DNA of 64,000 nucleotides from Sphingopyxis sp. (GCF_025869345.1 NZ_JAOZVW010000004.1:26128-90127), one strand, 5' to 3'; numbered from the stretch's first letter, positions 49,402 to 52,319 are shown. The notes: generated from the sequence alone by a model not told the origin. Translations and numbers: made by a program.

Positions 49402-50547
49402 ATGGTCGATGTCTTCATTTCCTATTCGCGCGACAACAAGGCGCGCGTGGCCGAGATCGCCGAGGCGGTCGCGGCGGCGGGCTATGACGTCTGGTGGGAC
49501 GCCGAACTGCCGCCGCATCGCTCCTACGGCGATGTGATCACCGAAAAGATCGGCAGCGCCAAGGCGGCGATCGTCGTCTGGTCGCAGACCTCGGCGCAAT
49601 CCGAATGGGTGCGCGCCGAGGCCGATGTCGCGCGCAACCAGAAAAAGCTGGTGCAGACGTCGATCGACGATGTGATGCCGCCGCTGCCCTTCAACCAGAT
49701 TCAATTCGCCGAACTCGCCGACTGGAACGGCGAGCCCGACCATCGCGGCTGGCGCAAGGTGATGATGAGCCTGGAGGAGCTGTGCGGACGGGAGGCGGCG
49801 CCTGCGGCCGCCTCGCAGCCCGCACCGCCCAGACCGGCTGCGGCCGACCGGCAGGAGCCCCCCCCGGCCCGAAAGCCATCTTTCCTGCCATGGGCGCTGC
49901 TGGGGCTTGCGGTCGTTGCCGTCGCCCTGCTCGCGTGGAAACTGCTTCAGCCGTCGCCCGAACCCGCGACGGCGGCGGCGCCCACCGAAACCACGGCGGC
50001 CCCCAAGGAAGCGGATGCAAGAGCGACACCGGTCGCCACGTCGCCCGCAGAGGCCTTCACGCTGGCGGCGGTGATCGACGATCCCGACGGCTTCACCAAC
50101 ATCCGCTCGGGGCGGAGTGCCAAGGCGGCAATCATCGGCAAGGTGCTCGAGGGCGAAAAATTCCTGACTTATCAGCAACCCGGTTCATGGTGGCGGGTGC
50201 GCAAGGCCGACGGCACCACCGGATATATGTTCCGCAAATATATCCGGCTGATCGAAGGGGGAGGGCCTCCGCCGCCGCCCGCCGACACGGGCAAGGGCGC
50301 GATCATCGCCGATTCCTCGACGCGCGCGCTGACCGCGGCCGATGTCGCGGGCCTCACCCCGGAGCAGGCGCGGCTGGCGCGCAACGAGATTTTCGCGCGG
50401 CACGGCCTGCGCTTCAAGGACCCCGGCCTGCAAGCCTATTTCACGTCCTTGCCCTGGTATCGGCCGACCAGCGACAGCGTCGCGCTGTCGGCGGTCGAAA
50501 AGGCGAATGTCGCGCTGCTCCAATCGGCCGAAACCGCCGCGCAATGA
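49402..50547 (+). CDS. Membrane TIR-domain protein: TIR - TM - SH3b - YARHG
   Basis: MVDVFISYSRDNKARVAEIAEAVAAAGYDVWWDAEL...WSQTSAQSEWVRAEAD (TIR with candidate catalytic E73); TM SFLPWALLGLAVVAVALLAWKLL; SH3b TNIRSGRSAKAAIIGKVLEGEKF...WWRVRKADGTTGYMFRKYIRLI; YARHG LARNEIFARHGLRFKDPGLQAYFTSLPWYRP. Confidence 0.92.
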   Translation: MVDVFISYSRDNKARVAEIAEAVAAAGYDVWWDAELPPHRSYGDVITEKIGSAKAAIVVWSQTSAQSEWVRAEADVARNQKKLVQTSIDDVMPPLPFNQIQFAELADWNGEPDHRGWRKVMMSLEELCGREAAPAAASQPAPPRPAAADRQEPPPARKPSFLPWALLGLAVVAVALLAWKLLQPSPEPATAAAPTETTAAPKEADARATPVATSPAEAFTLAAVIDDPDGFTNIRSGRSAKAAIIGKVLEGEKFLTYQQPGSWWRVRKADGTTGYMFRKYIRLIEGGGPPPPPADTGKGAIIADSSTRALTAADVAGLTPEQARLARNEIFARHGLRFKDPGLQAYFTSLPWYRPTSDSVALSAVEKANVALLQSAETAAQ

Positions 50548-52319
50548 CGGCATCGGCCGCCGCCGTCGAAGCCGAGGTCGCGCACCGGCTGGGGCAGGGC
50601 GATGCGCTGAGCGCGTTCGACTGCGCGGCGGCGGCGCGGCGCGAGGGGATCGAGAGCCCGCGGCTGCGCTATCTGATGGTGCGCGCGCTCGCGGCGTCGG
50701 GCGACAGCCTCGGCGCGATGCACCTTTACGAACAACTCGACCTTGGCGCGACGGGCGATGTCGACAGCCTCGCGCTCGCCGGGCGCATCTGGAAGGACGA
50801 AGCCTTCGATCATGACGGCGACCAGCGCGCTGGTTTCCTGCGCAAGGCCGCCGCCGCCTATGACCATGCGTTTCAGGCATCGGGCGCCGATTTCCCGGCC
50901 ATCAACGCGGCCAGCCTGTATGCGATGCTCGGCGAGCGCGAGCGCGCGGCGGCGCTGGCCGAACCGATCGCGGCGCATGGCGCCGCCGACACTTATTGGG
51001 ATCAGGCGACGCTCGTCGAGGCGCTGCTGCTGCTCGGGCGCGGCGAGGAGGCGCTCGTCCATGCGCGCGGCGCCAATGCGCAGGCGGGAACGCGCGCGGG
51101 TGACCGCGCCTCGACCTGCCGCCAGATCGCCCGGCTTGCGGCCAGCGGCGCGATCGACGCGGGCGATGCGCAAGACATCGCCGCGCTGCTGCGTCCCGCG
51201 CCGGTCGGCGTCTATTGCGGCCGCATGTTCCGCGCGGGCGGGGCGGGGGAGGCGAATGCGGCGCGGGCGATCGCGGGGGCGCTTGACGCGCAGCCGCTTT
51301 CGGCGCTGATCGGCCCGCTGGCGTGCGGCGCCGACATCCTGTTCGCGGAGGCCGCGCTCGATCGCGGCATTGACCTGACCATCGTCCTGCCCTTTGCCGA
51401 GGATGATTTCATCGCCCAGTCGGTCCGGTCGGGCGGCGCCGAATGGCTTCCGCGCTATCGCCGCTGCCGCGACGGCGCCGCGATGGTCCATTTCGCGAGC
51501 AACGCGGGCTATGTCAGCGACGATTGCCAGTTCATCCTCGGCTCGCACACCGCGATGGGGCTTGCCAGGCTGCGCGCGCGCGAACTCGAAACCGCCGCGA
51601 TCCAGCTTGCGGTGGTCGATCCGGCGGTCGCCGCGCGTTCGGGGGCGGAGATTGCCGGAACCAACGCCGATATCGCGCTCTGGCAGGGCGGGGGCGGGGA
51701 GACGCGGACGATCCCGGTCGGCGATCTCGACCGCAATCTCGATTTTCCGCCGGCGCCGAAACCGCCCGCAGGCACGCAGCGGGGTCTCTACGCGATATTG
51801 TTCGCCGATTTCGCGGGCTTTTCGAAGCTCGGCGAGGCCGAACTGCCGGTCTTCGCGCACGAGGTGATGGGCGGCATCGGCCGCATCCTCGACGGGTTCG
51901 GCGACGCCGTGCTGTTCCGCAACACCTGGGGCGACGCGGTCTATGCGGTGATCGACACCCCCGGCGCGGCGGCACGGATCGCGCTCGCGATGCAGGAACG
52001 GCTCAACGTGCTGCCCCCGGGGCTGCGGCTGGAGGGGCATAAGGCGGGGATGCGCACCGGCATCCACTTCGGTCCGATCTATCGCGGGATCGACCCGGTG
52101 GTCGGCAACGAGCTGTGGTACGGCACCGAGGTTACGCGCACCGCGCGGATCGAGCCGGTGACATTGGTCGGGCAGGTCTATTGCACCCAGCCGCTCGCCG
52201 CGATGCTCGCGCTCGACAATGCGCGCGATTTCGACTGCGATTATGTCGGCAAGGTCGGGCTTGCCAAGGATTATGGCGAACTCGCGCTCTATCGCCTCTC
52301 CCGCCGCTCAGGCGGCTGA
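50544..52319 (+). CDS. TPR - SLOG-like - class III nucleotide cyclase fusion protein
   Basis: 591 aa; TPR-like N-terminus (ALAGRIWKDEAF..AINAASLYAMLGER), SLOG-like centre (LIGPLACGADILFAEAALDRGIDLTIVLPFAEDDFIAQSV), C-terminal cyclase (YAILFADFAGFSKL, NTWGDAVYAV, YGTEVTRTARIEP); ATGA overlap with the TIR gene. Confidence 0.88.
   Translation: MTASAAAVEAEVAHRLGQGDALSAFDCAAAARREGIESPRLRYLMVRALAASGDSLGAMHLYEQLDLGATGDVDSLALAGRIWKDEAFDHDGDQRAGFLRKAAAAYDHAFQASGADFPAINAASLYAMLGERERAAALAEPIAAHGAADTYWDQATLVEALLLLGRGEEALVHARGANAQAGTRAGDRASTCRQIARLAASGAIDAGDAQDIAALLRPAPVGVYCGRMFRAGGAGEANAARAIAGALDAQPLSALIGPLACGADILFAEAALDRGIDLTIVLPFAEDDFIAQSVRSGGAEWLPRYRRCRDGAAMVHFASNAGYVSDDCQFILGSHTAMGLARLRARELETAAIQLAVVDPAVAARSGAEIAGTNADIALWQGGGGETRTIPVGDLDRNLDFPPAPKPPAGTQRGLYAILFADFAGFSKLGEAELPVFAHEVMGGIGRILDGFGDAVLFRNTWGDAVYAVIDTPGAAARIALAMQERLNVLPPGLRLEGHKAGMRTGIHFGPIYRGIDPVVGNELWYGTEVTRTARIEPVTLVGQVYCTQPLAAMLALDNARDFDCDYVGKVGLAKDYGELALYRLSRRSGG

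What the first reader, a model, noticed from the sequence alone, without database searches (positions are those of the whole stretch)
49402..52319. Two-gene TIR + nucleotide-cyclase signalling unit with a periplasm-facing sensor (Pycsar-like layout, different architecture)
Seen in sequence: a membrane TIR protein (N-terminal TIR, one TM, then SH3b and YARHG domains predicted outside the cytoplasm) overlaps by ATGA a 591-aa protein combining a TPR-like region, a SLOG-like domain and a class III cyclase domain. Established knowledge: Pycsar pairs a class III-type pyrimidine cyclase with a TIR or TM effector, and SLOG, TIR and specialised TPR sensors recur in nucleotide-dependent conflict systems. 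Inference: envelope damage or phage entry sensed by SH3b/YARHG could couple to the TIR NADase and a cyclic or other nucleotide signal. This effector has no visible cyclic-nucleotide-binding domain, so it is not canonical Pycsar. The SLOG-like domain could be the ligand binder or enzyme instead. Flanking genes are ordinary housekeeping genes, so a conserved signalling role is an equally live alternative.
Basis: partly seen in the sequence, partly recalled or inferred. Interest (0 to 1): 0.88.

Follow-up and report, generated by a model that had tools for sequence, protein, structure and literature searches.

The report
Envelope TIR receptor paired with nucleotide cyclase
Two overlapping Sphingopyxis genes encode a membrane-anchored TIR protein that looks like an envelope receptor and a partner that joins a predicted nucleotide-binding domain to a cyclic-nucleotide-making enzyme; together they look like an uncharacterised signalling relay fixed in the chromosome, not a Pycsar phage-defence system.

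Summary
At 49402-50547 lies a TIR-TM-SH3b-YARHG protein; it overlaps (ATGA) a 591-aa TPR-S/SLOG-like/class III cyclase protein at 50544-52319. AlphaFold models agree (cyclase protein pLDDT 94.5; TIR protein 78.7). In Sphingopyxis the two are present or lost together: about 27 of 80 genomes have the full-length cyclase gene, at the same site wherever context was held, with clean empty sites and one decayed remnant of both genes. Across Sphingomonadales different TIR proteins, mostly membrane-anchored with swapped outer modules (SH3b, YARHG, LprI, TPR), sit beside the same cyclase; elsewhere in Pseudomonadota it usually lacks a TIR neighbour. Catalytic residues of both enzymes are invariant, but the cyclase carries an N-x-W-G-D signature unlike adenylyl, guanylyl or three known Pycsar cyclase clades. 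It is not Pycsar: no cyclic-nucleotide-binding domain, and the TIR is lost repeatedly while the cyclase persists. Phage defence is not supported: no viral and almost no plasmid relatives, housekeeping neighbours, strong purifying selection. Best reading: envelope cue -> TIR makes an NAD+-derived messenger -> SLOG/TPR-S -> cyclase -> cyclic nucleotide, Thoeris-like logic with a cyclase as output. The mechanism is inferred.

The parts
49402..50547 (+). Gene 1: transmembrane TIR protein, 381 aa (TIR - TM - SH3b - YARHG)
   Evidence: ORF; Pfam TIR_2 3e-19, SH3_3 2e-9, YARHG 5e-22; AF2 model; Foldseek: SARM1/PdTIR/AbTIR TIR domains
49402..49791 (+). TIR domain, aa 1-130 (cytoplasmic); W69 and putative catalytic E73 (codon 49618-49620) invariant
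   Evidence: W69 and E73 in 34 of 34 partner TIRs aligned; E73 aligns with the E of PdTIR 3h16; dN/dS 0.088
49879..49944 (+). Transmembrane helix, about aa 160-181
   Evidence: hydropathy peak 2.29 and charge asymmetry; isolated helix 162-181 between disordered linkers in the model
50077..50256 (+). SH3b domain, about aa 226-285 (predicted periplasmic)
   Evidence: Pfam SH3_3; Foldseek to SH3b of an endolysin (4krt) and a dipeptidyl-peptidase VI (3npf)
50290..50535 (+). YARHG domain, about aa 297-378 (predicted periplasmic)
   Evidence: Pfam YARHG 78.1 bits; fastest evolving folded domain of the pair, dN/dS 0.227
50544..50547 (+). ATGA overlap of the two genes (translational coupling likely)
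   Evidence: the same -4 spacing in nearly all Sphingopyxis homologues
50544..52319 (+). Gene 2: TPR-S / SLOG-like / class III nucleotide cyclase protein, 591 aa
   Evidence: ORF; AF2 model mean pLDDT 94.5, pTM 0.92
50556..51191 (+). TPR-S helical region, aa 5-216
   Evidence: Pfam TPR-S 46.8 bits and MAP3K_TRAF_bd 24.8 bits; helices 5-216 in the model; absent in one clade that keeps TIR + SLOG + cyclase
51195..51743 (+). SLOG-like Rossmannoid domain, aa 218-400, invariant G226, G257, G262, D264, E269, R304, G339
   Evidence: model strands and helices, DprA-like Foldseek match, invariance in 45 of 45; no Pfam match
51774..52307 (+). Class III nucleotide cyclase domain, aa 411-588; metal Asp D422 and D464, transition-state R535 and K575 invariant
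   Evidence: Pfam Guanylate_cyc; Foldseek to adenylyl and guanylyl cyclases; residues in 45 of 45; dN/dS 0.064
51921..51938 (+). N460-T-W462-G-D464-A465: noncanonical base-specifying motif (Asn at the adenylyl-cyclase Lys / guanylyl-cyclase Glu position, Trp two before the second metal Asp)
   Evidence: N, W and D in 45 of 45; NxWGD also in most class- and phylum-wide homologues; alignment to 3mr7 and 3et6

Best explanation
The two genes form a chromosomal signalling relay. The first is a receptor: SH3b and YARHG face the periplasm and sense the state of the envelope (perhaps peptidoglycan), and a single TM helix links them to a cytoplasmic TIR NADase. When the cue appears, TIR domains cluster and convert NAD+ to an ADP-ribose-type messenger. 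The second is the output enzyme: its SLOG-like domain (with TPR-S, where present) binds that messenger and switches on a class III cyclase dimer, which makes a 3',5'-cyclic mononucleotide of still unknown base; that messenger acts on other proteins, plausibly Crp/Fnr-type regulators. It works like Thoeris (TIR enzyme -> SLOG-bearing effector) with a cyclase in place of the NAD-destroying SIR2, and opposite in direction to Pycsar. Shown by sequence and model: domains, predicted topology, coupling, presence and loss as a unit, conserved catalytic residues, modular outer domains, noncanonical cyclase motif. Inferred: NADase activity, identity of both messengers, ligand binding by SLOG, direction of flow, cue, physiological output.
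For: Receptor module sits on the TIR protein and candidate ligand-binding domains on the cyclase protein. The TIR domain is near-constant while the outer part swaps between SH3b+YARHG, SH3b alone, YARHG alone, LprI, TPR, WD40 or an unassigned domain, nearly always after a TM helix. Several TIR architectures neighbour the same cyclase family; 12 label changes on the tree against 34 shuffled. In Sphingopyxis the cyclase is in 30 of 80 genomes (about 27 full length), none of 20 cyclase-less genomes tested keeps the TIR gene, and one genome has a joint remnant. Invariant W69/E73 in TIR; D422/D464/R535/K575 in cyclase. TPR-S was lost in one clade that retains TIR + SLOG + cyclase, so the core is TIR-SLOG-cyclase. 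A cNMP-binding Crp-type regulator abuts homologues with an intact motif in L163 and L165. Precedent: ThsB TIR product binds the ThsA SLOG domain (PMC11204291; PMC9503650).
Against: No activity or ligand is shown. SLOG assignment is by fold only. Outside Sphingomonadales the cyclase protein is usually without a TIR neighbour, and within Erythrobacteraceae and Parasphingopyxis the TIR is absent next door in several species; all ten genomes of that kind tested have TIR genes elsewhere, so action in trans is neither shown nor excluded. TIR could act as a scaffold. No cNMP receptor gene lies beside the window pair.
Confidence: 0.42

Rival explanations
1. Direct protein contact: the TIR domain is a scaffold, not an enzyme. 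Cue-driven TIR assembly binds the TPR-S/SLOG part of the partner and activates the cyclase allosterically, with no NAD+-derived messenger.
For: Translational coupling and tight co-inheritance fit a physical complex; TPR-S is related to the MAP3K TRAF-binding region, a protein-protein module.
Against: W69 and E73, the NADase signature, are invariant in all 34 TIR partners aligned, which a scaffold need not keep; TPR-S is dispensable in one clade that keeps the TIR; the SLOG-like motif residues are also invariant.
Confidence: 0.25
2. Anti-phage abortive-infection system: envelope perturbation by phage triggers the pair, and NAD+ loss and/or a toxic cyclic nucleotide stops the infected cell.
For: TIR, TPR-S and SLOG are recurrent in conflict systems (PMC9503650, PMC8195603); patchy presence in the genus; neighbouring STAND NTPases in two distant homologues.
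Against: Same chromosomal site in the genus, flanked by housekeeping genes; no relative found in the viral collection and only two ~33% identical plasmid hits; no PADLOC model hits protein 2, and neighbours show only generic methyltransferase/helicase hits; catalytic domains as constrained as flanking genes; cyclase kept without TIR.
Confidence: 0.17
3. Pycsar-like order: the cyclase senses something through TPR-S/SLOG, makes a cyclic nucleotide, and that activates the membrane TIR as effector.
For: Same two catalytic classes in two adjacent genes; in relatives the pair stays linked.
Against: The TIR protein has no cyclic-nucleotide-binding domain; its other domains are predicted to face outward; the TIR is lost repeatedly while the cyclase stays intact; the cyclase lacks the base-specifying residues reported for PycC clades B, D and E.
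Confidence: 0.08
4. The two genes are independent neighbours kept together by chance or co-transcription.
For: Outside Sphingomonadales the cyclase mostly has no TIR neighbour.
Against: Conserved 4-bp overlap, presence and loss together in Sphingopyxis, joint decay in one genome, and several TIR architectures next to the same cyclase family.
Confidence: 0.05

Closest known systems
Thoeris (ThsB TIR + ThsA SIR2-SLOG)
   Same: Two-gene unit in which one protein carries a TIR enzyme and the other a SLOG(-like) domain fused to an output enzyme.
   Different: Output domain is a class III cyclase, not SIR2; TIR is membrane-anchored with an outer sensor; TPR-S added; SLOG assignment by fold only; fixed chromosomal locus, no defence evidence.
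Pycsar (PycC cyclase + PycTIR/PycTM)
   Same: A class III cyclase next to a TIR protein.
   Different: No cyclic-nucleotide-binding domain on the TIR; different base-specifying residues; the sensor is on the TIR and the ligand-binding domains on the cyclase, so the flow is probably reversed.
TPR-S conflict/signalling systems (Burroughs and Aravind 2020; recalled from memory, full text not held)
   Same: TPR-S domain (PF20308 above cut-off) in a gene neighbourhood with TIR; predicted sensing of NAD+-derived signals.
   Different: Whether this exact two-gene architecture with an envelope-facing TIR receptor and the N-x-W-G-D cyclase was listed there could not be checked.
Class III adenylyl/guanylyl cyclases with regulatory domains
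   Same: Fold, metal-binding aspartates and transition-state Arg/Lys conserved.
   Different: Asn replaces the adenine-selecting Lys / guanine-selecting Glu, Trp two residues before the second metal Asp, and no Asp at the second purine position.

Membership tests
Pycsar | Effector with a cyclic-nucleotide-binding domain (PycTIR) or PycTM fold | tested here: not met
   Pfam finds TIR, SH3 and YARHG families only; no cNMP_binding
Pycsar | Base-specifying residues of known PycC clades (B: Y50/D94/R97; E: F100/R142/Q144; D: F60/K104/F109) | tested here: not met
   Homologues carry F420, N460, W462, A465; compared by position relative to the metal Asp, not by superposition; clades A and C not compared
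Pycsar | Makes cUMP or cCMP and gives phage resistance | not testable with these tools
   needs biochemistry and phage challenge
Thoeris | TIR protein of the ThsB families | tested here: inconclusive
   ThsB_TIR PF08937 19.1 bits, below its 21.2 cut-off; PADLOC ThsB models weak; ThsB_TIR just passes in some partner TIRs
Thoeris | ThsA with SIR2-SLOG or TM-macro architecture | tested here: not met
   protein 2 is TPR-S / SLOG-like / cyclase; no SIR2 or macro domain
TPR-S systems | TPR-S domain | tested here: met
   PF20308 46.8 bits against cut-off 27.6; 23 of 25 homologues match
TPR-S systems | Senses an NAD+-derived signal | not testable with these tools
   needs binding assays
SLOG superfamily | Rossmannoid fold of the DprA/LOG type | tested here: inconclusive
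   DprA-like Foldseek match E=3e-4, TMt 0.72; no Pfam match at E up to 10
Class III nucleotide cyclase | Two metal-binding Asp plus transition-state Arg and Lys | tested here: met
   D422, D464, R535, K575 in 45 of 45; fold
Adenylyl or guanylyl cyclase proper | Purine-selecting pair Lys/Asp (or Thr) or Glu/Cys | tested here: not met
   N460 in 45 of 45; second position T/L/N/S/G; alignment to 3mr7 and 3et6
TIR NADase | Catalytic Glu with preceding Trp (W-x3-E) | tested here: met
   W69 and E73 in 34 of 34; nearest folds include SARM1, SPARTA TIR, PdTIR, AbTIR; activity itself not testable

The most novel reading that the evidence does not exclude
A bacterial two-messenger cascade: a Toll-like transmembrane TIR receptor turns an envelope cue into an NAD+-derived nucleotide, which gates a cyclase of new base specificity (N-x-W-G-D) that makes the second messenger. 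This would be Pycsar run backwards, used for ordinary signalling and not for cell death.
Probability: 0.25. Interest if true: 0.87.

Novelty: new variant of a known kind. Interest (0 to 1): 0.64.

Why it matters
The characterised bacterial TIR enzymes mostly feed abortive infection. A TIR receptor with swappable outer sensors that controls a second-messenger cyclase would show TIR-derived nucleotides used as ordinary intracellular signals, resembling Toll-type receptors in layout. The cyclase is widespread (about 6-7% of sampled genomes in the class and the phylum) and its base specificity cannot be read from any known class, so a direct assay could reveal a new cyclic mononucleotide pathway. 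The pair is small, the cyclase protein is modelled with high confidence, and Sphingopyxis can be worked with safely.

Tried and rejected
PADLOC and NCBIfam: no system match for protein 2; TIR-only weak matches for protein 1. Sequence proof of SLOG by Pfam or PDB profiles failed; only fold supports it. Viral contigs: no relative; plasmids: two Caballeronia records at ~33% identity over 57% of the query, and the gene overlapping that homologue gave no TIR hit. The idea that TIR linkage is universal for this cyclase was dropped after the class- and phylum-wide samples. The idea that W462 itself sets base choice was weakened by homologues with K-T-W-G-D or E-S-W-G-D: W marks the clade, and Asn is the likelier specificity change. 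Simple gene calling failed in low-GC loci, so TIR adjacency was counted on six-frame ORFs with profile HMMs built here. The key earlier paper on TPR-S (J Bacteriol 2020, 10.1128/JB.00365-20) is not held, so priority could not be checked. Foldseek of whole protein 2 against PDB is dominated by cyclases, so a ThsA comparison by fold was not obtained.

Full report
What is there. The window holds two overlapping genes, 49402-50547 and 50544-52319, on the + strand. The first product has TIR_2, SH3_3 and YARHG domains above their Pfam cut-offs and one TM helix. The second has TPR-S and Guanylate_cyc above cut-off, and between them a 180-residue region that no Pfam model recognises. AlphaFold2 on 45 relatives gives a model of mean pLDDT 94.5: a helical TPR-like array (aa 5-216), a Rossmann-like domain (about 218-400) and a class III cyclase fold (411-588). 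Foldseek finds the cyclase in PDB and a DprA-like protein for the Rossmann-like domain (E=3e-4, TMt 0.72), so 'SLOG-like' is supported by fold, not by sequence. The TIR protein model (mean pLDDT 78.7) has TIR, TM, SH3b and YARHG joined by disordered linkers; nearest TIR folds include SARM1 and bacterial NADases, and the SH3b matches those of an endolysin and a dipeptidyl-peptidase.

Is it a unit? Yes, in its lineage. Named relatives show that the window comes from Sphingopyxis or a very near relative. Of 80 genomes of the genus, 30 have a match and about 27 a full-length cyclase gene. The Sphingopyxis loci fetched with upstream context all have the TIR gene directly upstream, almost always with the same 4-bp overlap. 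Of 20 cyclase-less genomes tested with the TIR protein, none keeps it; in those resolved, the flanking genes lie at the same place without the pair. One genome (G984) keeps small remnants of both genes between those same neighbours. So the pair is present or lost as one unit at one site.

How far does the link reach? Among 69 named loci with at least 2 kb of context on both sides, 49 have a TIR gene within 200 bp; outside the Sphingopyxis-type loci it is 35 of 55. The partners are of several kinds: TIR-TM with SH3b and/or YARHG or an unassigned outer domain; TIR-TM-LprI; TIR-TM-TPR; TIR-TM-WD40; TIR with a coiled coil and two TM helices; and TIR-FHA. In three FHA cases from the first family search a kinase and a phosphatase gene follow (assigned by eye). 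On a tree of the cyclase protein the partner types change 12 times against 34 expected by shuffling. In one clade (Erythrobacter, Novosphingobium and relatives) TPR-S has been lost, leaving SLOG + cyclase, and within it the TIR was later lost in some species at a conserved locus. In samples drawn across the class and phylum, however, the cyclase protein is found in 26 of 385 and 19 of 299 genomes and only about 3 of ~40 loci have a TIR within 1.5 kb. The cyclase is therefore probably the older, self-standing element, and TIR proteins are partners recruited mainly in Sphingomonadales.

Catalytic capacity. W69 and E73 of the TIR are invariant in 34 partner proteins; D422, D464, R535 and K575 of the cyclase are invariant in 45 relatives. 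The position that selects adenine (Lys) or guanine (Glu) is Asn in all 45, and a Trp precedes the second metal Asp by two residues. Known pyrimidine cyclases use other residues near these positions (PMC11224242). Wider relatives mostly keep NTWGD, with rare KTWGD and ESWGD, so Trp marks the clade and Asn is the likelier specificity change. Whether the base is a purine or a pyrimidine cannot be told.

Role. dN/dS in Sphingopyxis is 0.088 for TIR, 0.064 for cyclase, 0.15-0.16 for SLOG, TPR-S and SH3b and 0.23 for YARHG, against 0.09-0.19 for three flanking genes. There are no relatives in the viral collection, only two distant hits on plasmids, and no defence genes beside the pair beyond generic methyltransferase and helicase matches. 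This is the profile of a maintained signalling function, not of a mobile defence module, although patchiness and the domain vocabulary leave defence open.

Mechanism. The part facing outward and swapping between species is on the TIR protein; the predicted nucleotide-binding domains are on the cyclase protein. In Thoeris a TIR product binds a SLOG domain and switches on the attached enzyme (PMC11204291; PMC9503650). The simplest reading here is the same logic with a cyclase as output: cue -> TIR -> NAD+-derived nucleotide -> SLOG (and TPR-S) -> cyclic mononucleotide. In two distant relatives with the intact NxWGD motif a Crp-type regulator lies beside the cyclase gene, a plausible receiver. 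Every biochemical step is inference. The main rival is direct activation by TIR assembly without a small messenger.

Novelty. TPR-S, TIR and SLOG in nucleotide-based systems are known; the TPR-S proposal (Burroughs and Aravind 2020) is recalled and could not be read. The searches of the paper library made here found no paper on a TIR-SH3b/YARHG receptor paired with a SLOG-cyclase, but most subscription papers are not in it. I therefore file it as a new variant of a known kind.

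Noticed in passing
L065-L070 and L072-L074 (matches listed): A sister subfamily in the same family of bacteria keeps TPR-S and the SLOG-like domain but its cyclase domain has lost the metal Asp and NxWGD motif or is degenerate; it sits with a TIR-TM-TPR type gene, a small unknown gene and, in most, a Crp-like protein on the other strand.
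   Followed up: partly
L163:756-1460 and L165:3341-4042: cNMP-binding Crp-type regulators directly beside homologues with an intact NxWGD motif in one distant genus.
   Followed up: partly
L159:5-1486 and L161:3384-4718: nSTAND1 NTPase genes beside two distant cyclase homologues, a conflict-system-like neighbour.
   Followed up: no
L050, L053, L055 (also L113, L117, L122): Cyclase followed by TIR-FHA; in the first three also a Ser/Thr-kinase-like and a PP2C-like gene (kinase and phosphatase assigned by eye), suggesting a link to phospho-signalling.
   Followed up: partly
L097 and L108: Two tandem TIR-TM-YARHG genes upstream of the cyclase.
   Followed up: no
L114, L123, L127, L130, L139: Outer domain of the TIR partner replaced by an unassigned module (motif like RDVTLINQSGETIMYLYWS); three of the five scanned, no Pfam match for it.
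   Followed up: partly
L088, L210, L221/L225: Decaying copies in Sphingopyxis: an early-ended cyclase reading frame, one with an internal TAG reported, and a remnant of both genes.
   Followed up: partly
L170, L185, L187, L188: Homologues with K or E instead of N in the NxWGD motif (KTWGDG, ETWGDG, ESWGDA), natural comparators for base specificity.
   Followed up: no
G000 contigs C55, C128, C133 (L031, L033, L034): Three further TIR_2 genes elsewhere in the window's genome.
   Followed up: no
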